49,256 bases of DNA, taken from NCBI GenBank assembly GCA_016178305.1, contig JACOTM010000084.1, positions 1 through 49,256 on the forward strand. Reading direction: 5' to 3'. Of this stretch, positions 1 to 9,013 are shown piece after piece. The translations under genes were made by a program, and so were the position numbers. The stretch is from Flavobacteriia bacterium (GTDB taxonomy: Bacteria; Bacteroidota; Bacteroidia; Flavobacteriales_D; Crocinitomicaceae). The notes beneath the pieces were generated by a model. The model saw only the letters and a list, made by a program, of their open reading frames with translations. It searched no databases and was not told where the DNA came from. The first letter of the stretch is position 1. Each line of letters begins with the position of its first letter.

Positions 1-119
1 TGATTTGCTTTCAAAATTGTATTTTTACACTATAGGTCACAGCGGGCGGCTGATAAATTTAATATTGCTTTGGTTGTGATTTGCTTTCAAAATTGTATTT
101 TTACACTATAGGTCACAGC
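1..119 (+). CRISPR. Type II-C CRISPR array, 3' end (two repeats, one complete spacer)
   Basis: Two copies of a 47-bp repeat beginning GTTGTGATTTGCTTTCAAAA and ending ATAGGTCACAGC are seen. The first is cut by the window edge (bases 1-43 visible) and the second is complete at 73-119. The visible parts are identical. The spacer between them is 29 bp (44-72). Repeats of about 47 bp with spacers near 30 bp are typical of Bacteroidetes type II-C loci. The tracrRNA anti-repeat at 7793-7815 pairs with the first half of the repeat, and in type II crRNAs that half follows the spacer, so crRNAs are read on the plus strand, towards cas2. The rest of the array and any leader lie left of the window. Confidence 0.95.
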
Positions 120-137
120 AGAGTGGCCTAAAGTGTA
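102..137 (+). repeat. Hairpin: terminal CRISPR repeat plus inverted partial copy
   Basis: The 3' part of the last repeat (102-116, TACACTATAGGTCAC) is followed after a 6-base loop by GTGGCCTAAAGTGTA (123-137). This is its inverted copy, with one mismatch and one G-U wobble over 15 bp. A transcript running through the array end would fold here. No T-run follows, so it is not a classical intrinsic terminator. The inverted copy matches the repeat half that does not pair with the tracrRNA. Confidence 0.7.
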
Positions 138-298
138 ATAACAACAAGGGTTTTAAGAAATTTATCTGAAAATAAAAAATCACCTAGAATTAAGTCTTGT
201 TTCTTTGTTTAGTATTGATTTTCAAATCCTGTCAATCGATTCAATTTTTCCAGAAGATATTTGTCAAACACTTTTTGGAGAAAAAACTTAAACTTTCA

Positions 299-640
<342 letters not shown>

Positions 641-1540
641 TCAAAAATGAAAAAGTGGATAACTTATTTTTCGCTGCTCCCCTGCAAAACATTTATACAA
701 ACTAGAGGTTGTATTACTTACAGCATGAAAGAGTGGTCGTTTTAATTCGTTGATTTCGATATCTAATTGGGATAATTTTAATAGTTCAATTTTTTGTTCT
801 CGTGTTAGTCCTTCTGGTTCAGCATCTTCAATATTGGGTAAATTCAACACGATCCAATCCACATAAGGACGATAAGGCTCCATAATATCGTCAGCTAAAC
901 AAAACGCATTGTATTTGTTTTTATGGTGTATTCCAATACTTGGAAACATACCTGTAGCCGTAATTGCTCGAGCCACTATCGATCGTAAAATAGCATAACC
1001 ATAGTTTAATTGAGCATTCGGTGTATCTCTATCTCTCGTTCTTACGAAATGCTTTCCATAGATTTCTTTCCAATAATAGGCTGCCGCTTCAGCTTCACAA
1101 TTTTTAGCATCACCACTCGTAACTTTTTCTATCAAATTTTCTAATCTTGTGGCATTTAGATTTAACTTTCTCAATACCATTGCCTGATTTTGAATCTTTG
1201 CTTTAATCGTTTGTTGCCACAATTGTTTCTTCAATGGTACAGAAGCTTCCAATTGTGTTCTTATGCGTTCCGTTTGTTCACTATTTCCATCTAATGGAAG
1301 AAAGATCCCATTTGGCATGTATTTCTGACTACAAGTTACAACTGCTACTTTGTGTGCTAATAATTCATCTAACAAATACGTTGTAAGTGTAATTTGAGGA
1401 TGTTCTAATATCACACTTCCTAAGTCTTCTATAGGAATGGTTTTAGTGATACGTTGCTCATCTTTTAATTCAACAACTAATTGCTGATTTTTACACGATA
1501 GATGTGCTGGATTACTGAAGTGAAGGGTTCGTTTTACCAT
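641..1540 (-). CDS. cas1: CRISPR-associated integrase Cas1 (type II)
   Basis: Cas1 is the integrase that joins prespacers to the array. The product is 299 residues, normal for type II Cas1. The N-terminal beta domain begins MVKRTLHFSNPAHLSCKNQQ. The C-terminal helical domain holds the metal ligands: E149 in NCEAEAAAYYW, H205 in GIHHKNKYNAF, and the acidic cluster LADDIMEPYRP with E221. No csn2 or cas4 follows, which fits subtype II-C. Upstream is not cas9, as usual, but a rhuM-Fic gene 163 bp away. A hairpin touches its start codon. Two 60-base lines counted by hand (961-1020, 1201-1260) are 22/60 G+C, higher than lines sampled in cas9. Confidence 0.95.
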   Translation of the reverse strand: MVKRTLHFSNPAHLSCKNQQLVVELKDEQRITKTIPIEDLGSVILEHPQITLTTYLLDELLAHKVAVVTCSQKYMPNGIFLPLDGNSEQTERIRTQLEASVPLKKQLWQQTIKAKIQNQAMVLRKLNLNATRLENLIEKVTSGDAKNCEAEAAAYYWKEIYGKHFVRTRDRDTPNAQLNYGYAILRSIVARAITATGMFPSIGIHHKNKYNAFCLADDIMEPYRPYVDWIVLNLPNIEDAEPEGLTREQKIELLKLSQLDIEINELKRPLFHAVSNTTSSLYKCFAGEQRKISYPLFHF

Positions 1541-1572
1541 AGTAAAAAGAGTTGGTTTTCCCTTTTTTACTA
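1540..1572 (-). promoter_or_regulatory. Leader hairpin abutting the cas1 start codon
   Basis: On the minus strand TAGTAAAAA and TTTTTACTA form a perfect 9-bp inverted repeat around a 15-base loop. The last base of the stem is the A of the cas1 ATG. In an mRNA running into cas1 this stem would sit over the ribosome-binding region. The pairing is AU-rich and weak, so any control is inference. Confidence 0.4.
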
Positions 1573-1600
1573 TTTGTTTTTCAAAATGTTACAACTTATA

Positions 1601-1657
1601 CCGATTGACCTTTGTTATTACTGAAATAAAAATCCAGCTTAACCAAAGCTATATCGG
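1601..1657. repeat. Imperfect 14-bp inverted repeat upstream of cas1
   Basis: CCGATTGACCTTTG (1601-1614) and CAAAGCTATATCGG (1644-1657) are inverted copies matching at 11 of 14 positions, separated by 29 bp. They lie in the 163-bp gap between rhuM-Fic and cas1. They could be an operator, the end of a decayed mobile element or a weak terminator for rhuM-Fic. The sequence does not decide. Confidence 0.4.
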
Positions 1658-1703
1658 CATTATACTAAAATATTTCAACTGAAAATTCAAAGTTTAATTA
1701 GTA

Positions 1704-2675
1704 TTAAATTGTTTTTATTAATTGTACCATCAATTGTACCATCAATTCTTTATCACTCGGATTACTTTGTGCCACTAATAAAGCTAATGCAACTAAGGCA
1801 TTATCATTGATTTTCAACTCTCCATTTTTCTTAAAACGATGTTTGTTTTTTTCTAAAAACCATACAAATAAAAATGCACCTATGCGTTTATTTCCATCCG
1901 AAAAAGAATGATTCTTGATTACAAAATACAATAAATGTGCAGCTTGCTCTTCTATCGTCGGATATAAATAAATGCCATCAAATGTTTGAACCACACTACA
2001 TAATGTTCCTTCAAAACTTTGGTCTTTTTCATTGCCAAACAAGGCCGTTGCTTCGTTTTGTTCCATCAATTTTGTTTTCAATACTTCGATAGCCTCTTTA
2101 GCTTCTTGATATTGAATTTCGTAGGTTATTTCTTCCGATAAATCAGAAGTTGGTAAATTATTACTATCAAATTGATTCAGCAAGATAAAACTTTGTGTGT
2201 ATTGTGTGATAATTTCTAATAATCCTTTTGCTTCTGTCAAATTAGTTTCACTATCAATCGACTGTTGAATCAGTTGAACCGTTTGTTGTAATTCGTTTAA
2301 TCGTTTTTGATTAATCGTATAACCTTGAATTAAATGTTCTTTTAAGCGTTGGGTTGCCCATTGACGGAATGCTGTTCCCTTTTTAGAATTCACACGGTAA
2401 CCTACTGAAATAATAGCATCTAAATTATAAAACTTGATTTTCCTTTTCACATTTCTTTTACCCTCTACTTGAACTACCGAGAAATATTCGGTAGTTGAAT
2501 TTTCATCCAACTCTCCTTCAGAAAATATGTTTTTAAGGTGCAAACCTATAGTATCACTATCCTTTTCAAACAGTTCAGCCATTATTCGCTGCGGTAACCA
2601 AACAGTTTCATTATCAGTCCAAACAGAAACTTCAATTGAATCGTCTTTTGATTTATAAATTTCGATATTTTTCAT
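1704..2675 (-). CDS. RhuM-family protein with C-terminal Fic/Doc domain
   Basis: The product is 323 residues with two parts. Residues 1-130 are the RhuM (virulence protein) domain, with WLPQRIMAELFEKD, a helix-turn-helix-like stretch, and the family signature ISVGYRVNSKKG...FRQWATQRLKEHLIQGY. Residues 205-323 form a Fic/Doc fold with the active-site motif HSFSDGNKR (H256-R264). Fic AMPylators have HxFx(D/E)GNGR, while Doc, which phosphorylates EF-Tu, has a Lys at the second-last place, as here. A Doc-like kinase or other nucleotide-transfer toxin is therefore likely, but the substrate is unknown. No antitoxin gene is evident, though the RhuM half could act as a DNA-binding regulator. The gene lies between cas9 and cas1 in the same direction. 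A 12-bp tandem duplication adds an MVQL at the C-terminus. Confidence 0.85.
   Translation of the reverse strand: MKNIEIYKSKDDSIEVSVWTDNETVWLPQRIMAELFEKDSDTIGLHLKNIFSEGELDENSTTEYFSVVQVEGKRNVKRKIKFYNLDAIISVGYRVNSKKGTAFRQWATQRLKEHLIQGYTINQKRLNELQQTVQLIQQSIDSETNLTEAKGLLEIITQYTQSFILLNQFDSNNLPTSDLSEEITYEIQYQEAKEAIEVLKTKLMEQNEATALFGNEKDQSFEGTLCSVVQTFDGIYLYPTIEEQAAHLLYFVIKNHSFSDGNKRIGAFLFVWFLEKNKHRFKKNGELKINDNALVALALLVAQSNPSDKELMVQLMVQLIKTI
1721..1744. repeat. 12-bp tandem duplication at the 3' end of rhuM-Fic
   Basis: ATTGTACCATCA occurs twice in direct succession (1721-1732 and 1733-1744). In the protein it gives MVQLMVQL just before the C-terminus. It keeps the frame and looks like a slippage duplication. 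Confidence 0.7.
2267..2367. repeat. Direct repeat shared by the two rhuM genes, copy 1
   Basis: About 101 bp here are nearly identical to 2768-2868 (offset 501 bp). The segment encodes the helix WATQRLKEHLIQGYTINQKR and what follows. The flanking parts of the two genes are much less alike, which suggests recombination or gene conversion over this stretch. Confidence 0.75.
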
Positions 2676-2759
2676 TATTCCTTTTAATTCAGCCCAAATT
2701 CAATCGTTCTACATATATACTTTTAAGAAAGTTATTTTTTTAATGATTTTCATATCAAT

Positions 2760-3179
2760 CTATTTATGAATCAGTTGGACGGTTTGCTGCAATTCGTCTA
2801 ATCGTTTTTGATTAATCGTATAACCTTGAATTAAATGTTCTTTTAAGCGTTGGGTTGCCCATTGACGAAATTGAGTACCTCTCTTTGAATTAACTCTGTA
2901 TCCCACAGAAATAATTAAATCCAAATTGAAATATTCAATTATCCTTTCTACTTCCCTTTTTCCTTCTTTTTGAACTGTTGCATTTTTTACAACAGTTGAA
3001 TCATATTCAAGTTCTCCTTCTTTATAAATTGATTTTATATGCCTGGAGATAACAGATTTATCTCTTTCGAATAGTAATGAAAGTTGATTCATAGACAGCC
3101 AAACAGACTCATTTATTAGCTGTACATTAATTTCATTACCATTTTCAATTCTAAATATTTCGATTTCGTTCATAAACAC
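2760..3179 (-). CDS. Truncated RhuM-family protein (likely remnant)
   Basis: The 139-residue product holds only the RhuM N-terminal domain: WLSMNQLSLLFERDKSVISRH, ISVGYRVNSKRGTQFRQW and the same WATQRLKEHLIQGYTINQKR helix as its neighbour. It then ends at QLIHK. Compared with the full gene (…QLIQQSID…), the stop TAG replaces a Ser codon TCG, and Ile-Asp codons still align after the stop before similarity fades. RhuM proteins are usually over 300 residues. This is therefore best read as a copy that lost its C-terminal half by a nonsense change plus deletion, though the small DNA-binding-like domain could still be made. It follows cas9 by 57 bp. Codon 3 is also an ATG (MNEIEIF...), an equally good start. 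Confidence 0.7.
   Translation of the reverse strand: MFMNEIEIFRIENGNEINVQLINESVWLSMNQLSLLFERDKSVISRHIKSIYKEGELEYDSTVVKNATVQKEGKREVERIIEYFNLDLIISVGYRVNSKRGTQFRQWATQRLKEHLIQGYTINQKRLDELQQTVQLIHK
2768..2868. repeat. Direct repeat shared by the two rhuM genes, copy 2
   Basis: This is the partner of 2267-2367, inside the 3' end of the truncated rhuM gene. Weaker similarity runs about 25 bp further left, past the stop codon. Confidence 0.75.
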
Positions 3180-3236
3180 ATTTTAATACTCTCCCACCTG
3201 AACAATTTTACCTAAATGACTTAAAATATTTTACCA

Positions 3237-6200
3237 TTAACTCAATACTCTAGTTATTTTACCAACTCTATCAATTTTTAAATTCCAACAAATAGATTTA
3301 ATCATTATTGGTTTCAATTTTTCATCATAAACAGTATTCAGCTTATCAAATTCTAACATTCTTTCATTTTTATTATTAGATCCATTTTCATTTGAAATAA
3401 TTTCTTTAGAATAACTATTATGAACAAAATGTCCTTCTCCACCTGTACAACTAACAAATTTATAAATACGGTTCACTTGCTCTTTCGATAAATTAGAAAA
3501 ATCAACTAAGTTTTGATCATTAACTTCTTCTTCTGTAAGAACATACACTAAATCATTTGGAGAAAGATAGAATAATAGATTATTCCCTTTTTCATTTTTT
3601 TCCGGTACTGAAATTAAACCTTGTTTTTGTCTTTCAATTACGATGTTTAAAGGAATAGTTTCATAATTTCTTTTTCCGGTTTCGTCCACATAAATAGCAT
3701 AAAAAAGATTAGTTCCTTGTGCTGCTTCTACAAATTTTCTCTGTTTATTACCTGTTTGCCCTATAGGAAATCTACTGCCAATTTCAAAAACTCTAACACT
3801 TTTAATCGGTTTATGCATTTTTCCATCATTAAATTTTGTAATATTTTCATTTAAATATTCAATACCATCATGTGAAAATGCTATTTCAGGATTCCACTCT
3901 TTAGTTTCAAGATAATTTTTTAAAATTTTTTGAATTCCTGTATCAGTAATTGAATCAATTTTCTTTAAATTAAAAGAGATATCTAAAGATTTTCTAATTG
4001 CACTTATAATTTTTCCTTTTGGAGTTATTATACGTTTTAAATCAATTTTTCCATAAACAAATGCTTTATGCATCGGTTTTCTGATAGACCAACTATTTCC
4101 TTTTGTTTGAGCAACTTGTTCTTTGTTTAGTAATCCTGCTTTCAGAACCCATTTTTCAGGTTTATTGACAGATTTATTAATTACCCTAACATTTTGCTTA
4201 AAACTAACTACAGTAGTCTCTAATTGTTTTTTACTATCTACAACAAATGTTTTCCAAGGTTGTTTAAATTCCCAATGATAATTTTTGTTTGAAGCGTCAT
4301 TGTATTTTTTATCACATAAAACAACTTTTAAATCATTTCTGTTTTTTTGCTTTTCTTCTTTTGATTTGTTTTTCTCTAAAGCATTTTGATTGTTCAAATA
4401 ATTAACGTGATTTCTTGTAGAACAAGCGATTACAAGAGCATCTAAAGCGTGATGGCGATGGTCAATTCTTTTTTTACTAAAGCCTTTCGATAATTCTAAA
4501 GGAACGGTTGGTAAATATTTTTGATGCTTTTTGTTGAAAGTTGTGAAATTTTCAGAGTTAGTTAATTCATTTAAACGTTCAAATCTTGGTAAAATTAATT
4601 CATTCCAAACATCATTTAATCCCCAACTTTGTTTAAGTGATGAAGTAATTTGACCATTTAAAGGCAATACATTTTTAGAGTTTACACCATCATCATTTTT
4701 ATCTTCTCTCACAATATTCGATAATGTTGCCATAACGAATTTACTGATAAATCGAGTATCATTTAATTGTCTTTCAATCATTTTTTCAGGAATATCTTCC
4801 ATCAAAAGTTTGCTTTTTTTACTTTGATTTTTATTGTAATTATCTTTCACGAAAAATTCATACGACTCTTCATCAAAAATTTTCACTGTTTTTCCGAAAC
4901 CTAAATCGACTATTTGATCATGATGATTTTTAATAAATTCACGTCCTGTTTGATTGCTTTTTAATTTATTTACTGCAGATTCACATATCACTTTATTACT
5001 AAAACTATCATCATAAAATCTGCTTTGTGGAATTATGTGTTCAATTTCATAGTCAGATGTAAATAAACGAGATAAAGGTATAGTCTGACCTGTATAAGGA
5101 GAAAGGTATTTTTGTTCTAACCAAAGTTTATATCGTATTAATTCTGATTTAGTTGGTTGTGGTGATTTACTAATTTTAGCAATATCGTCTGGGATTTCAA
5201 TGTTTGAAGTTAAAACTCCTTCTTCATATATCTTTAAAATATCATGTTGCATGGGAGAATATGAACGAACATTTTCAATGGTTGAATCATACAGCATTTC
5301 AGATAATAATGCTTTTATTCGAAGATTTGTATTTTCGTTTTCTGTTACTTGAGAAGTGATTCTTTTTCTTTTGTCAGCAGGATTTTTCATTTCCCGACCT
5401 AACTCAACGTGTATTTCGTCGAAAAAATGTTCTTTCCCTTCTCCAAATTGTTTCCAAATATCATTTACGACCCTAAATGTTTCAGAAACAATTTGCTCAA
5501 CAATCGGATTTCGAAGAGAATGTTGTTTAAATGATTTAATATAAGCTTCTAAATCGATTGCAGTTTTCCATTTTTGATTTGAATGTCTATCATAAACAAT
5601 ATAACTTGTTAGCCATAGTGGTAAACCACTGAAATCTTTATTTTCGATTAGATGAATTGACTTCTCACGAATTGAGTTTCTAATATTTTCATCAAATTCT
5701 CCTGTTTGAATTTTTTCAATTCTAATTTTTGTTAACTCATCAATATTATTCCAATCCCAATATTGTCCCATTCGCATCAATGGTAACAATTTCTTGATAG
5801 CTTTTGCAGAATAAGAACCATATTCACTTTTAAATGGAGGTATTTTCTTGAAATTTTCAACAAAACTTTCAATATCTAATGAATATTTTTTAGCAAAAGT
5901 TTCAATTGCTTTTTCATATTCAAATTTATCATTTACTGAATAGATGATATGCCATAATTTTTCAACTATTTCTGAATTTAAAAAGTTAACTGGAATATTC
6001 TTCACTTTTTCAATTCGACTTTGAATCAAATGAAGTGTTTCATTACAAGGATATTTTTTGTCTTTATCATCAACAAAATTCCAACGATATGTCTTTTCAG
6101 GAATCTTAAAATACTTTAAAATTGCTGTCTGATTAACTTCTTTTCTTTGATTTAAAAATTCAAACAGAGACACATATTTTTCTTCTGAATCTATAAATTT

Positions 6201-7574
6201 ATACGTTTCATCTTCATCGTTTTCACGTGAATAAATTTTTAAATTCTTGATCCATTGCCATAATCTAAATTCTTGATAAAGTGGATGGGATTTAGCAATA
6301 CATTTTAAAGGTGTTTTTTTCTTTATTCCATCATGGAAATAATATTTTGACTCAAAAGAACAATCACTGATCAAAGATTTTTTACTTTTTAAAGGTCGTT
6401 GGTAAAAAAGGATGTCTTCCAAAAATAAATAAACAAAGTCTCTTTGAGAAATATTAGTTCTGTGAGCTTCGTTGTTTGGATATAGTTCTTCAATACATTT
6501 TATATAGTTTGCTTCATTTTGTAATTCTTGATGAAATGAAACTTGTTTTGCAAGAATTTTTCGTAATTCAAGTTTATATAATTTACGCTCTATTGTTTTG
6601 ATTAATTTGCCTTTTATTTTTTGATTTGGGTTTTGCAATAAGGTATCATATATATATTCACCTACAGTTTTCTTAGTTTTATCAATCTCTGATTCTGTTT
6701 TCTTTTTAACCAAAGTCCAATCGGTTTCTGCAGGAGCTCTAAAACTTCTTTTTTCTTTGCCTTCTTTATCTAATTTGATAGAACCGTCATCATTTAAATC
6801 GGTTGTAACAATAAATTCTTTCGTTTTATCTTTCCAATCAAATAATGGAGTTTTGCTAGACCTTCTATATATCCATCCATTCTCTAAAACTAAAGAATAC
6901 CATAGATCAGATTTACCTCTTTCTCGCTCATCTTCAATTACATTAATTACTTTTAAGGAATGAAACTCAACAAGTTTATTTGGATTCTCTTCCTCTTCTT
7001 CACCTCTTAATTGATAATAACCTCTTTTTTGATTAAAATGTAATAATAACCAAGCTAATTCTTCTTTTTCAATTTTACTTGTAAGTGCTTTTTTTCTTAA
7101 ATAATAAATCGTCCAATCAGCTGGAACTTTTTTGTCATTTTTTACTAATCCAGGTTGATTAACTTTAAAATCAGCAAGCATTTCCTCGAATGAATCTTTA
7201 AAAATAAATTCATTCTCACAATTATAAACTAATTTAGGTTCGGTTTCAGAAATAAATTGACCTAATCTTTTTGTAAAATCAATATTATCGGAATAATGCT
7301 CAGGAAGAAAATTAAGAACATTTAAAACTCTATGTAACCTCTCTCTTCTAAGAAGAAATCTTTCTCTTAATCTTCTTGCCCCTCTATAACCCGTTCTTTC
7401 TGCAGTTTGAGAAATGGATTGTCCACTTTCAAATTTCCCTAATACATCTTGACTCATAGGTATAATTCTAGATCCTAATCCTAAAATTTGACCTTTTTTG
7501 TTATCAAAATCTTGCTTAATTAGAGCCCAACCAATACTGTTTGTCCCTAAATCTAATCCTAAAATTGTTTTCAT
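3237..7574 (-). CDS. cas9: CRISPR-associated endonuclease Cas9 (type II-C)
   Basis: RNA-guided nuclease of the system. The start at 7574 gives 1445 residues beginning MKTILGLDLGTNSIGWAL, where D8 is the RuvC-I catalytic Asp. An ATG 33 bp further upstream only adds residues before this conserved start. An Arg-rich bridge helix (RGARRLRERFLLRRERLHR) lies near residues 60-85. RuvC-II is VELGREM with E724, HNH is YEIEHIIPQSRF with H846, and RuvC-III is HHALDA (H1041-A1046, D1045). All catalytic positions are present, so the enzyme looks active. HNH has Glu (E845) where SpCas9 has Asp839. About 1400-1500 residues is normal for Bacteroidetes II-C Cas9. The usual cas1 neighbour is displaced by two rhuM genes. 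Confidence 0.97.
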   Translation of the reverse strand: MKTILGLDLGTNSIGWALIKQDFDNKKGQILGLGSRIIPMSQDVLGKFESGQSISQTAERTGYRGARRLRERFLLRRERLHRVLNVLNFLPEHYSDNIDFTKRLGQFISETEPKLVYNCENEFIFKDSFEEMLADFKVNQPGLVKNDKKVPADWTIYYLRKKALTSKIEKEELAWLLLHFNQKRGYYQLRGEEEEENPNKLVEFHSLKVINVIEDERERGKSDLWYSLVLENGWIYRRSSKTPLFDWKDKTKEFIVTTDLNDDGSIKLDKEGKEKRSFRAPAETDWTLVKKKTESEIDKTKKTVGEYIYDTLLQNPNQKIKGKLIKTIERKLYKLELRKILAKQVSFHQELQNEANYIKCIEELYPNNEAHRTNISQRDFVYLFLEDILFYQRPLKSKKSLISDCSFESKYYFHDGIKKKTPLKCIAKSHPLYQEFRLWQWIKNLKIYSRENDEDETYKFIDSEEKYVSLFEFLNQRKEVNQTAILKYFKIPEKTYRWNFVDDKDKKYPCNETLHLIQSRIEKVKNIPVNFLNSEIVEKLWHIIYSVNDKFEYEKAIETFAKKYSLDIESFVENFKKIPPFKSEYGSYSAKAIKKLLPLMRMGQYWDWNNIDELTKIRIEKIQTGEFDENIRNSIREKSIHLIENKDFSGLPLWLTSYIVYDRHSNQKWKTAIDLEAYIKSFKQHSLRNPIVEQIVSETFRVVNDIWKQFGEGKEHFFDEIHVELGREMKNPADKRKRITSQVTENENTNLRIKALLSEMLYDSTIENVRSYSPMQHDILKIYEEGVLTSNIEIPDDIAKISKSPQPTKSELIRYKLWLEQKYLSPYTGQTIPLSRLFTSDYEIEHIIPQSRFYDDSFSNKVICESAVNKLKSNQTGREFIKNHHDQIVDLGFGKTVKIFDEESYEFFVKDNYNKNQSKKSKLLMEDIPEKMIERQLNDTRFISKFVMATLSNIVREDKNDDGVNSKNVLPLNGQITSSLKQSWGLNDVWNELILPRFERLNELTNSENFTTFNKKHQKYLPTVPLELSKGFSKKRIDHRHHALDALVIACSTRNHVNYLNNQNALEKNKSKEEKQKNRNDLKVVLCDKKYNDASNKNYHWEFKQPWKTFVVDSKKQLETTVVSFKQNVRVINKSVNKPEKWVLKAGLLNKEQVAQTKGNSWSIRKPMHKAFVYGKIDLKRIITPKGKIISAIRKSLDISFNLKKIDSITDTGIQKILKNYLETKEWNPEIAFSHDGIEYLNENITKFNDGKMHKPIKSVRVFEIGSRFPIGQTGNKQRKFVEAAQGTNLFYAIYVDETGKRNYETIPLNIVIERQKQGLISVPEKNEKGNNLLFYLSPNDLVYVLTEEEVNDQNLVDFSNLSKEQVNRIYKFVSCTGGEGHFVHNSYSKEIISNENGSNNKNERMLEFDKLNTVYDEKLKPIMIKSICWNLKIDRVGKITRVLS

Positions 7575-7687
7575 AATAAAGATGATTTGTGTTAAATCAG
7601 GATGCAAGTTACAATTAATTCACAATATAAAAATCAAATTTTGGTAAATAATTTCTGTTGATTTTGTTCAATAAAATAATGAAAAAC

Positions 7688-7724
7688 TTACGAAGGTATA
7701 CAGGCAAATCGTAATCTATTTACG
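7688..7724. repeat. TTACG/CGTAA alternating inverted motifs between cas9 and tracrRNA
   Basis: TTACG (7688-7692), CGTAA (7710-7714) and TTACG (7720-7724) stand in alternating orientation in the divergent region, so the middle one can pair with either neighbour. This could be an operator or attenuator for cas9. The motifs are short, so chance is possible. Confidence 0.25.
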
Positions 7725-7781
7725 TATTAAATTTTATTGTTTTTTTTCTCAAAAAAGTGAATTATATTCAAAAAAAGATTC

Positions 7782-7789
7782 TATATTTG
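7782..7789 (+). promoter_or_regulatory. -7 element of the tracrRNA promoter
   Basis: TATATTTG matches the Bacteroidetes -7 consensus TAnnTTTG exactly. Transcription would start 4-7 bases later, at the first bases of the anti-repeat. I see no clean TTG at the -33 position. Confidence 0.65.
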
Positions 7790-7792
7790 TTT

Positions 7793-7871
7793 TACAATTT
7801 TGAAGCAAATCACAATAAGGATTATTCCGTTGTGAAAACATTCAAGGCGGGAATAAAATCTCGCCTTTTTT
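7793..7871 (+). ncRNA. tracrRNA of the type II-C system
   Basis: The trans-activating RNA pairs with crRNA repeats and loads Cas9. The anti-repeat (7793-7815, TACAATTTTGAAGCAAATCACAA) is the reverse complement of the first part of the CRISPR repeat, with one missing A that makes a single-base bulge. Next comes a short GGATTATTCC nexus-like hairpin and a linker, then a terminator hairpin at 7844-7871. A TAnnTTTG box lies directly upstream. The gene is divergent from cas9. The exact 5' end is inferred from the promoter box. Confidence 0.9.
7844..7871 (+). terminator. Intrinsic terminator of the tracrRNA
   Basis: AAGGCGGG and CTCGCCTT form an 8-bp stem (one G-U) around the loop AATAAAAT, followed by a run of T. 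It also forms the last hairpin of the tracrRNA. Confidence 0.85.
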
Positions 7872-8015
7872 ATTTCAACTTTCTACCAAATTTTACCTTC
7901 TCATTTAATTCATCCCTAAATAAGAATAGCAATAAAATTGGCAGACTCAATAAAATAAGAAACTTAAATATCTCTTTCGGGAGATTTCTCTAAAAAATAA
8001 AATCTTTCCAATATG

Positions 8016-8047
8016 TTTGGCTATACCGTTTCAAAATCTTAACTTTG
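8016..8047 (+). promoter_or_regulatory. Probable sucD promoter
   Basis: TTTG at 8016-8019 and TAACTTTG at 8040-8047 fit the Bacteroidetes -33 (TTG) and -7 (TAnnTTTG) boxes with a 20-bp spacer, 36 bp before the sucD ATG. The 144 bp between the tracrRNA terminator and this promoter show no other gene. Confidence 0.6.
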
Positions 8048-8083
8048 GGTCGATTAAAAAATTAGATTCTAAAACCGCATACA

Positions 8084-8962
8084 ATGAGCGTACTTGTAAA
8101 TAAAAATTCAAAAGTAATTGTTCAAGGTTTTACTGGTAGTGAAGGTACTTTTCACGCTGGTCAAATGATTGAATATGGAACAAATGTAGTTGGTGGTGTT
8201 ACCCCAGGAAAAGGTGGATCAACACACTTAGACCGTCCAGTATTTAATACTGTTGCTGATGCTGTTAAAACAGCTGGAGCTGATACTTCTATCATTTTCG
8301 TTCCACCTGCTTTTGCTGCTGATGCGATTATGGAAGCTGCGAATGCTGGAATTAAAGTGATAATATGTATTACTGAAGGGATTCCAGTTAGTGACATGGT
8401 AAAAGCAAAAGAATATATCAAAGGATATGACTGTCGTTTAATCGGTCCTAATTGCCCAGGAATTATCACTGCTGACGAAGCAAAAGTTGGTATCATGCCT
8501 GGATTTGTTTTCAAAAAAGGAAAAATTGGTTTAGTTTCAAAATCAGGAACTTTAACCTATGAAGCTGCAGACCAATTAGCGAAAGCTGGTTTAGGAATTA
8601 CTACTGCAATTGGTATTGGTGGAGATCCAATTATTGGAACTACAACTCGCGAAGCTGTTGAATTATTAATGAACGACCCTGAAACTGAAGGCATCATCAT
8701 GATTGGCGAAATCGGAGGTTCTTTGGAAGCTATTGCTGCAAGATGGATTAAAGAACATGGTACTAAACCTGTTGTAGGATTTATTGCTGGTGAAACTGCT
8801 CCAAAAGGAAGAACAATGGGGCACGCAGGTGCAATTGTTGGTGGAGCAGATGATACTGCAGAAGCAAAAAAACGAATTATGAGAGAATGTGGAATTCACG
8901 TAGTTGATTCTCCTGCTCATATTGGTAGTAAAATGGCTGAAATTATGGGCGTAACTGCTTAA
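8084..8962 (+). CDS. sucD: Succinate-CoA ligase, alpha subunit
   Basis: SucD with SucC interconverts succinyl-CoA and succinate with substrate-level NTP formation in the TCA cycle. The 292-residue product has the CoA-binding Rossmann start ([19 protein letters not shown]) and the motif [13 protein letters not shown], in which H247 is the residue phosphorylated during catalysis. Length is normal. sucC is not next to it, so the subunits are encoded apart, as in many Bacteroidetes. It has its own promoter upstream and a strong terminator downstream, so it looks monocistronic. Confidence 0.97.
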
Positions 8963-8981
8963 TATTTTCTATTAAATATTT

Positions 8982-9013
8982 AAACGCAATCTTTTTAGGT
9001 TGCGTTTTTTTTT
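8982..9013 (+). terminator. Intrinsic terminator after sucD
   Basis: AAACGCAA (8982-8989) and TTGCGTTT (9000-9007) form a perfect 8-bp stem with a 10-base loop, and the T-run continues to 9013. Confidence 0.85.

What the first reader, a model, noticed from the sequence alone, without database searches (positions are those of the whole stretch)
102..137. Terminal CRISPR repeat folds against an inverted partial copy of itself
Directly after the last repeat lies a 15-bp inverted copy of its 3' half (one mismatch, one G-U), giving a strong hairpin without a T-run. It matches the half that does not bind tracrRNA, so it is not a second tracrRNA. It could cap the precursor, protect or mature the last crRNA, block spacer insertion at this end, or be a relic of an inverted insertion.
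Basis: partly seen in the sequence, partly recalled or inferred. Interest (0 to 1): 0.55.

Follow-up and report, generated by a model that had tools for sequence, protein, structure and literature searches.

The report
Covarying hairpin closing a CRISPR array
Where this bacterium's CRISPR memory array meets the flank at which new memories are normally added, the flanking DNA carries an inverted copy of half the last repeat, and in related bacteria the two halves have changed together, so the folded end appears to be kept by selection rather than being an accident.

Summary
The last 47-nt repeat (73-119) of a type II-C array is followed by an inverted copy of its 3' half: 15 pairs, one mismatch, one G-U (101-116/123-138), far beyond chance. 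By analogy with Riemerella, where spacers enter between cas2 and the array, this is the leader end. So it is a leader-repeat hairpin, not a block to insertion or a relic.

Relatives keep it through compensatory change: 12 of 21 pairs changed on both sides in 15 sequences, 0 of 500 shuffles. Of 167 arrays, 86 have a strong hairpin here (59 using the repeat), against 61 of 905 spacer contexts. In 66 complete arrays the leader end scores high in 11, the far end in 1. In this lineage the stem starts where the tracrRNA helix ends. Some other lineages have leader-only stems, partly terminator-like.

Leader-repeat hairpins are published for II-A and VI, where they stop an extraneous crRNA; one paper reports none in II-C, having searched the opposite end. 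That role cannot apply here. Best reading: an RNA hairpin closing transcripts that leave the array. A DNA role in spacer integration is not excluded; my wobble test was not decisive, and no transcript was seen.

The parts
73..119 (+). Last (leader-proximal) CRISPR repeat, 47 nt, crRNA sense on + strand
   Evidence: Rfam CRISPR-DR49/DR50 matches just below the gathering score
101..116 (+). 5' arm of the leader-repeat hairpin (3' half of the repeat)
117..122 (+). Loop, centred on the repeat/leader boundary 119|120
   Evidence: same centre in 8 listed relatives (L008, L010, L011, L013, L019, L020, L022, L024)
123..138 (+). 3' arm: inverted copy of the repeat's 3' half, in the leader
120..219 (.). 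Presumed leader between array and cas2 (end approximate): CAAGGGTTTTAAG at 145-157 and an A-run at 174-179 correspond to positions conserved at fixed distance from the boundary in 167 arrays
74..103 (+). Putative promoter inside the repeat: TTG 74-76, 19 nt, TATTTTTA 96-103 (Bacteroidota-type -33/-7)
   Evidence: TAnnTTTR in 93 of 167 repeats vs 11% of shuffled repeats
44..72 (+). Leader-proximal (by position newest) spacer, 29 nt
1..43 (+). Penultimate repeat, cut by the contig start; repeats of the same sequence lie at the end of contig C52 of the same assembly
299..637 (-). cas2
   Evidence: TIGR01573
641..1540 (-). cas1
   Evidence: TIGR03639, type II Cas1
3237..7574 (-). cas9
   Evidence: TIGR01865; start chosen within the ORF
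7793..7867 (+). tracrRNA: antirepeat 7793-7815 (pairs with repeat 2-25), terminator stem 7844-7867 followed by TTTT; 5' end not mapped

Best explanation
It is a leader-repeat hairpin at the acquisition (leader) end of a type II-C array. Array RNA is made from promoters inside the repeats and runs toward the leader. When RNA polymerase leaves the last repeat, the repeat's 3' half in the nascent RNA pairs with the inverted copy in the leader, while the 5' half stays free for tracrRNA. The transcript that carries the newest spacer would then end in two neighbouring helices (tracrRNA:repeat, then leader:repeat). I think this folded end closes and insulates the array's output: it protects or defines the 3' side of the newest crRNA precursor and hinders antisense RNA running into cas2. 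Shown here: the hairpin, its compensatory covariation with the repeat, its excess at the leader end over the far end, and its fit next to the tracrRNA helix in this lineage. From other species' literature: polarity and direction of transcription. Inferred: that it acts as RNA, and what it does.
For: Covariation: 15 sequences, 12 of 21 pairs with changes on both sides, 25 such cells, 0 of 500 shuffles; sliding the partner by 1-3 columns cuts paired cells from 75% to 41-49%. Species-specific match: repeat-leader complementarity >=24 in 12 of 78 distinct arrays vs 0 of 1081 own spacers, >=18 in 25 of 78 vs 8 of 1081. Wider set: hairpin >=18 in 86 of 167 arrays vs 61 of 905 repeat-spacer contexts and 26 of 501 shuffles; 41 of 91 sequence clusters by median. 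Leader end vs far end: >=18 in 11 vs 1 of 66 complete arrays. Pairing in 14 loci of the window's lineage falls off at repeat position ~24, where the antirepeat ends (2-25 in the window); stem and antirepeat meet also in L020 and L092 (24/24), L068 (18/17), L120 (21/20). Among 25 strong loci stem mismatches are G-U 23: A-C 1 vs 51-64% G-U in controls, as expected if + strand RNA is selected. Other lineages have leader-only stems at the same place, 9 of 18 with >=5 T in the 8 nt after the stem, i.e. terminator-like.
Against: No transcript was seen. The wobble excess rests on one lineage (20 of the 23 G-U) and on two columns (16 of 23); counting each event once per cluster over 83 loci gives 43 G-U vs 18 A-C, p 0.12-0.32, and the uncollapsed wide set 50:13 vs 245:122, p 0.056. 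The window-type hairpin is not an intrinsic terminator: T after the stem is near background (2.81 vs 2.59 of 8; 11 of 59 with >=5 T, background 12%). No predicted gain in tracrRNA hybridisation (16 hairpin loci, mean -0.56 kcal/mol, p 0.16; the window itself +1.0, i.e. weaker), though predicted accessibility of the tracrRNA half rises slightly (0.44 vs 0.40 in 23 loci, p 0.005). RNAalifold predicted no structure on the alignment. 81 of 167 arrays have no strong hairpin here, and only 59 use the repeat as 5' arm. In 8 of 54 strict repeat-leader stems the stem begins before repeat position 20, in L104 inside the tracrRNA half; no control was run for the stem edge. One paper suggests II-C may hold subgroups with different acquisition ends (PMC12638026, passages read).
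Confidence: 0.48

Rival explanations
1. DNA signal for spacer integration: Cas1-Cas2 (or a host factor) reads inverted copies on both sides of the integration junction, or a + strand DNA hairpin forms in the integration intermediate. The arms covary because both must follow Cas1 specificity.
For: The dyad centre lies on the repeat/leader boundary, the presumed integration site, in the window and 8 listed relatives. In S. thermophilus II-A about 10 bp of leader and 5 bp of repeat across the junction direct the first integration step (PMC6895254, passages read). The leader has DNA-like fixed-distance motifs (T34 92%, A56 95%). The collapsed wobble test does not separate RNA from DNA. The same strand folds as DNA too.
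Against: The centre is not constant across lineages (for example 0, +2, +12.5, -3.5) and 22 of 59 repeat-arm stems have bulges, which suits single-strand pairing better than duplex recognition. 81 of 167 arrays lack a strong stem. Within the lineage G-U exceeds A-C.
Confidence: 0.25
2. Transcription barrier proper: a terminator that protects convergent cas2-cas1-cas9 from array-derived antisense RNA.
For: Leader-only stems in 18 arrays include terminator-like ones (for example L173, L170, L174, L259, L261). In this layout array RNA would run toward cas2. The other end of this array has a terminator-like stem.
Against: The window's stem has no U-tail and repeat-arm stems as a group are near background, although this genome has a U-tail terminator-like stem at the tracrRNA (7844-7867).
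Confidence: 0.15
3. Neutral by-product: an inverted copy kept similar by template-switch correction of quasi-palindromes, without function.
For: Such correction can make inverted arms change together without selection (recalled mechanism, not searched).
Against: Would not by itself place the stem edge at the tracrRNA boundary in this lineage, nor recur with different stems in many lineages, nor keep wobble pairs rather than perfect copies.
Confidence: 0.1

Closest known systems
Leader-repeat hairpin of type II-A arrays (Liao et al. 2022, as described in PMC12080349 and PMC13187072; original paper not read)
   Same: Leader RNA pairs with the repeat next to the leader, at the acquisition end.
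   Different: In II-A the leader is upstream, the hairpin interferes with tracrRNA pairing of the extra repeat and so prevents the extraneous crRNA. Here the leader is downstream, the paired half is not the tracrRNA half, and the extra repeat lies at the other end of the array.
Leader-repeat hairpin of type VI (Cas13) arrays (PMC13187072; abstract, introduction and passages read)
   Same: Leader-encoded inverted copy pairing with the adjacent repeat.
   Different: Leader upstream; blocks Cas13 processing; no tracrRNA.
Type II-C anti-ecrRNA features (Feussner et al. 2025, PMC12080349; abstract, introduction, results, discussion and method passages read)
   Same: Same subtype. The far end of this array shows similar features: truncated first repeat and a terminator-like stem.
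   Different: They analysed the region upstream of the array (leader-distal) and state that no leader-repeat hairpins were identified in II-C; the hairpin here is at the downstream leader.
Leader palindrome of Riemerella anatipestifer CRISPR1 (PMC5006608, passages read)
   Same: II-C leader between cas2 and array with an inverted repeat.
   Different: As described there the palindrome lies in the putative leader and does not use the repeat.

Membership tests
Type II-C CRISPR-Cas array and locus | cas9, cas1, cas2 only (no csn2, cas4) | tested here: met
   TIGR01865, TIGR03639, TIGR01573; the five ORFs listed on the - strand between array and tracrRNA were scanned and none matches csn2 or cas4
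Type II-C CRISPR-Cas array and locus | tracrRNA antirepeat complementary to the repeat | tested here: met
   7793-7815 pairs with repeat 2-25
Type II-C CRISPR-Cas array and locus | promoter in each repeat, transcription toward the leader | tested here: inconclusive
   TTG-N19-TATTTTTA in the repeat; TAnnTTTR in 93 of 167 repeats vs 11% shuffled; no transcript data for this organism
Type II-C CRISPR-Cas array and locus | spacers inserted at the cas2-side leader | not testable with these tools
   Shown in Riemerella (PMC6008519, passages). Here only indirect: the outermost repeat at the other end is truncated, and in 66 complete arrays the far repeat carries 3.05 changes in its first 24 nt vs 0.29 in the rest.
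Leader-repeat hairpin (II-A / VI kind) | leader pairs with the adjacent repeat, conserved by covariation | tested here: met
Leader-repeat hairpin (II-A / VI kind) | masks the processing (tracrRNA) half of the extra repeat | tested here: not met
   in the window the stem begins at repeat 26, the antirepeat ends at 25
Rho-independent terminator | stem followed at once by a U-rich tail | tested here: not met
   no T-run after 138; not among the 5 terminator-like sites found in 1-9000
Rfam family | match to a described RNA family over the hairpin | tested here: not met
   over the hairpin only CRISPR repeat families (73-119, below gathering score) and a chance-level match RF02862 (E 3.6)

The most novel reading that the evidence does not exclude
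Leader-repeat complementarity is a general mark of the acquisition end in class 2 systems and serves spacer integration itself (for example as a hairpin of the + strand, which by the general integration scheme, recalled, stays joined to the leader while the repeat is single-stranded). The published suppression of extraneous crRNAs in II-A and VI would then be a secondary use, and II-C, where that use is impossible, shows the original one.
Probability: 0.13. Interest if true: 0.82.

Novelty: new variant of a known kind. Interest (0 to 1): 0.6.

Why it matters
Leader-repeat hairpins in II-A and VI arrays are explained as a guard against a useless extraneous crRNA. In II-C that crRNA would arise at the opposite end, and one study reports no such hairpins in II-C. 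A covarying hairpin at the II-C leader end, on the half that tracrRNA does not touch, means the pairing is kept for another reason, in newest-crRNA production or in spacer insertion. The two arms give a simple, decisive arm-swap experiment. The hairpin with the fixed-distance leader motifs could also help to orient II-C arrays, on which current tools disagree (PMC12638026, passages read).

Tried and rejected
Insertion block: rejected, the matching end is the acquisition end in Riemerella. Relic of inversion: rejected by covariation. Second tracrRNA: rejected, wrong half of the repeat. Intrinsic terminator: rejected for this stem (no U-tail). Freeing the tracrRNA half to favour the newest spacer: accessibility rises slightly but net hybridisation energy does not, so not claimed. 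Wobble asymmetry as proof of RNA: strong in the lineage, lost when events are counted once per cluster, so not claimed as proof. RNAalifold on the alignment gave nothing. An unrestricted repeat-leader alignment with a bonus for G-U ran into the 5' half, 60 of 79 stems starting before position 22; the strict version placed 46 of 54 at position 20 or later. I give weight to the strict one because the loose one extends through weak matches, but this is a choice. Order of acquisition could not be read: L044 and L012 share no spacer, and the 64 shared spacers found lie in locus pairs that are the same genome fetched twice, or in L106/L156, not followed. Covariance models and structure prediction were not used, as they could not decide RNA against DNA.

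Rows dropped: one search parsed 81 of 123 loci; the window and 4 loci were added and 2 corrected by hand, giving 86, of which 78 distinct. One search found arrays in 196 of 258 loci (62 without, 4 of them for lack of a cas1 match). One search dropped 12 of the newly added arrays (unlike last copy, odd repeat start, or masked N at the leader) and kept 167 distinct of 170. The named-genome scan kept the best 80 of 584 relatives.

Full report
WHAT IS THERE. The window is contig C76 of its assembly and begins inside a CRISPR array. On the - strand lie cas9 (3237-7574), cas1 (641-1540) and cas2 (299-637); two other genes sit between cas9 and cas1. The + strand carries a tracrRNA next to cas9 whose antirepeat (7793-7815) pairs with positions 2-25 of the 47-nt repeat. 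The + strand is therefore the crRNA strand and the array reads toward cas2. Repeats of the same sequence at the end of contig C52 are presumably the rest of the array.

THE HAIRPIN. Directly after the last repeat (73-119), bases 123-138 are an inverted copy of 101-116: 15 pairs, one A.A mismatch, one G-U, a 6-nt loop centred on the repeat boundary. RNA MFE is -20.3 kcal/mol, z -5.8, 0 of 200 shuffles. The complementarity score is 26 against at most 9 for the array's own 4 testable spacers and 0 of 100 shuffles.

WHICH END. [quoted passage not shown] In Flavobacterium columnare II-C transcription runs from within repeats toward the leader, and a TTG in the repeat is the proposed -33 element (PMC8092290, passages read); F. 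psychrophilum RNA-seq shows such an array transcribed (PMC10309648, passages read). PMC5006608 reports no promoter in R. anatipestifer repeats, and PMC12638026 suggests II-C may contain subgroups with different acquisition ends (passages read), so polarity here is by analogy. The flank fits a leader: across 167 arrays, positions at fixed distance from the boundary are conserved (A13 75%, T34 92%, A56 95%), and the window has A at 132, T at 153 and an A-run at 174-179. The C52 end has a truncated repeat without its tracrRNA half, preceded by a 12-bp hairpin and a terminator-like stem. In 66 complete arrays 30 far-end repeats differ from the leader-end one, with on average 3.05 changes in the first 24 nt and 0.29 in the rest. 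This agrees with Feussner et al. (PMC12080349), who found the extra, oldest repeat mutated mostly in its first 15 nt.

CONSERVATION. Loci came from 240 genomes of the family (37 with a Cas1 match at E <= 0.001), 399 of the order (41 at 1e-40), 395 each of class and phylum (84 and 59 at 1e-30), overlapping sets; 80 named genome loci, a capped list; 7 viral contigs and 6 plasmids. In 78 distinct arrays the complementarity of the last 24 nt of repeat with the first 30 nt of leader reached 24 in 12, and 18 in 25; 1081 of their own spacers reached these in 0 and 8. The sequences differ between species but stay complementary: on 15 aligned junctions 12 of 21 pairs have changes on both sides, 25 cells, no shuffle of 500 as high; covariation score 0.291 vs 0.19 shuffled and 0.09-0.11 slid. 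Further pair types alone were less striking (29, reached by 22 of 500 shuffles). RNAalifold found no consensus structure on that alignment. In 167 arrays a hairpin of score >= 18 within repeat end plus 45 nt of leader occurs in 86, against 61 of 905 repeat-spacer contexts and 26 of 501 shuffled leaders; collapsing to 91 clusters, 41 have a median >= 18 (p 4e-24). Of the 86 stems 59 use the repeat as 5' arm, 18 lie in the leader, 9 are mixed. A second form, seen in Flavobacterium and others, has its centre near +12.5 (12 loci in that bin). At the far end of 66 complete arrays 1 reaches 18, at the leader end 11.

FIT WITH tracrRNA. In 14 loci of the window's lineage pairing holds from boundary distance 4 to about 24 and then falls off. 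The antirepeat covers repeat 2-25 in the window and the stem starts at 26; the two meet at 24/24 in L020 and L092, 18/17 in L068, 21/20 in L120 and 25/25 in L086. In L010 they overlap by a few bases (25/21). In L016, L053, L078 and L106 a gap of 2-7 nt remains, in L056, L102 and L105 a larger one. In L104 the best stem lies inside the tracrRNA half (5-23). Over all 54 strict stems 46 begin at position 20 or later; no control was run for this edge. The stem does not by itself improve predicted tracrRNA binding, though predicted accessibility of that half is slightly higher (0.44 vs 0.40 over 23 loci).

RNA OR DNA. Within 25 strong loci, stem mismatches are 23 G-U and 1 A-C, against 51-64% G-U in controls (Fisher p 0.002 and 0.0007), which favours + strand RNA. 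But 20 of the 23 are in the window's lineage and two conserved columns supply 16. Counting each event once per cluster over 83 loci gives 43:18, not different from the null; the uncollapsed wide set gives 50:13 vs 245:122, p 0.056. The test is not decisive. Against a duplex-DNA site: the centre shifts between lineages and 22 of 59 stems have bulges. For a DNA role: the centre on the integration junction in this lineage, and II-A data that sequences across the junction direct integration (PMC6895254, passages read).

TERMINATION. Stems that use the repeat are followed by near-background T content (2.81 of 8 vs 2.59); leader-only stems are T-rich (4.28; 9 of 18 with >= 5 T). Some lineages thus seem to put a terminator where this lineage puts a repeat-leader stem.

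MECHANISM PROPOSED. Transcripts begun in older repeats run through the newest spacer and the last repeat. The repeat's 5' half is left for tracrRNA, the 3' half folds onto the leader. A transcript begun at the last repeat's own promoter should start near 108-111 (inferred from the -7 element) and could form only the inner part. The hairpin would thus mark and close the RNA that carries the newest spacer and insulate cas2 from array antisense RNA. Shown: structure, covariation, place, fit in this lineage. Inferred: RNA action and effect.

COMPARISON WITH PRINT. Leader-repeat hairpins are described for II-A and type VI as a block on the extraneous crRNA (PMC12080349, PMC13187072, sections read). 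PMC12080349 states that none were identified in II-C; it analysed up to 180 nt upstream of arrays, i.e. the leader-distal side. My searches (listings seen, seven of the listed papers besides these two opened or read in part as named here) showed no report of a repeat-leader hairpin at the II-C leader end; a palindrome in the R. anatipestifer leader is in print (PMC5006608, passages read). Most subscription papers and bioRxiv as a library are outside what I could search.

VERDICT. A real, covarying leader-repeat hairpin at what is most likely the acquisition end of II-C arrays; a new variant of a known kind, at the end and on the repeat half where the accepted explanation cannot hold.

Noticed in passing
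L006 236-330 (contig C52, minus strand): The outermost repeat at the other end has lost its tracrRNA-binding half and is preceded by a 12-bp hairpin and a terminator-like stem with a T-tail, resembling the published II-C anti-ecrRNA features.
   Followed up: partly
167 leaders, window 120-219: II-C leaders, nearly all of Bacteroidota, have positions conserved at fixed distance from the array (A13, T19, A28, T33-34, T43-46, A54-58, T-runs near 90-99); by eye some recur every 10-11 bp, as if the DNA were wrapped or bent on a protein.
   Followed up: partly
window 1704-2675 and 2760-3179, minus strand: Two genes lie between cas1 and cas9, one with a death-on-curing (DOC) match just above the cut-off; they share a 224-nt stretch at 80% identity, so one looks like a partial copy of the other.
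   Followed up: partly
66 complete arrays among fetched loci: Far-end repeats carry about ten times more changes in their first 24 nt than in the rest, so the tracrRNA half decays while the promoter half is kept.
   Followed up: partly
L170, L173, L174, L176, L259, L261 leaders: Leader-only stems right after the last repeat, several flanked by or ending in A- and T-runs, like terminators between array and cas2.
   Followed up: partly
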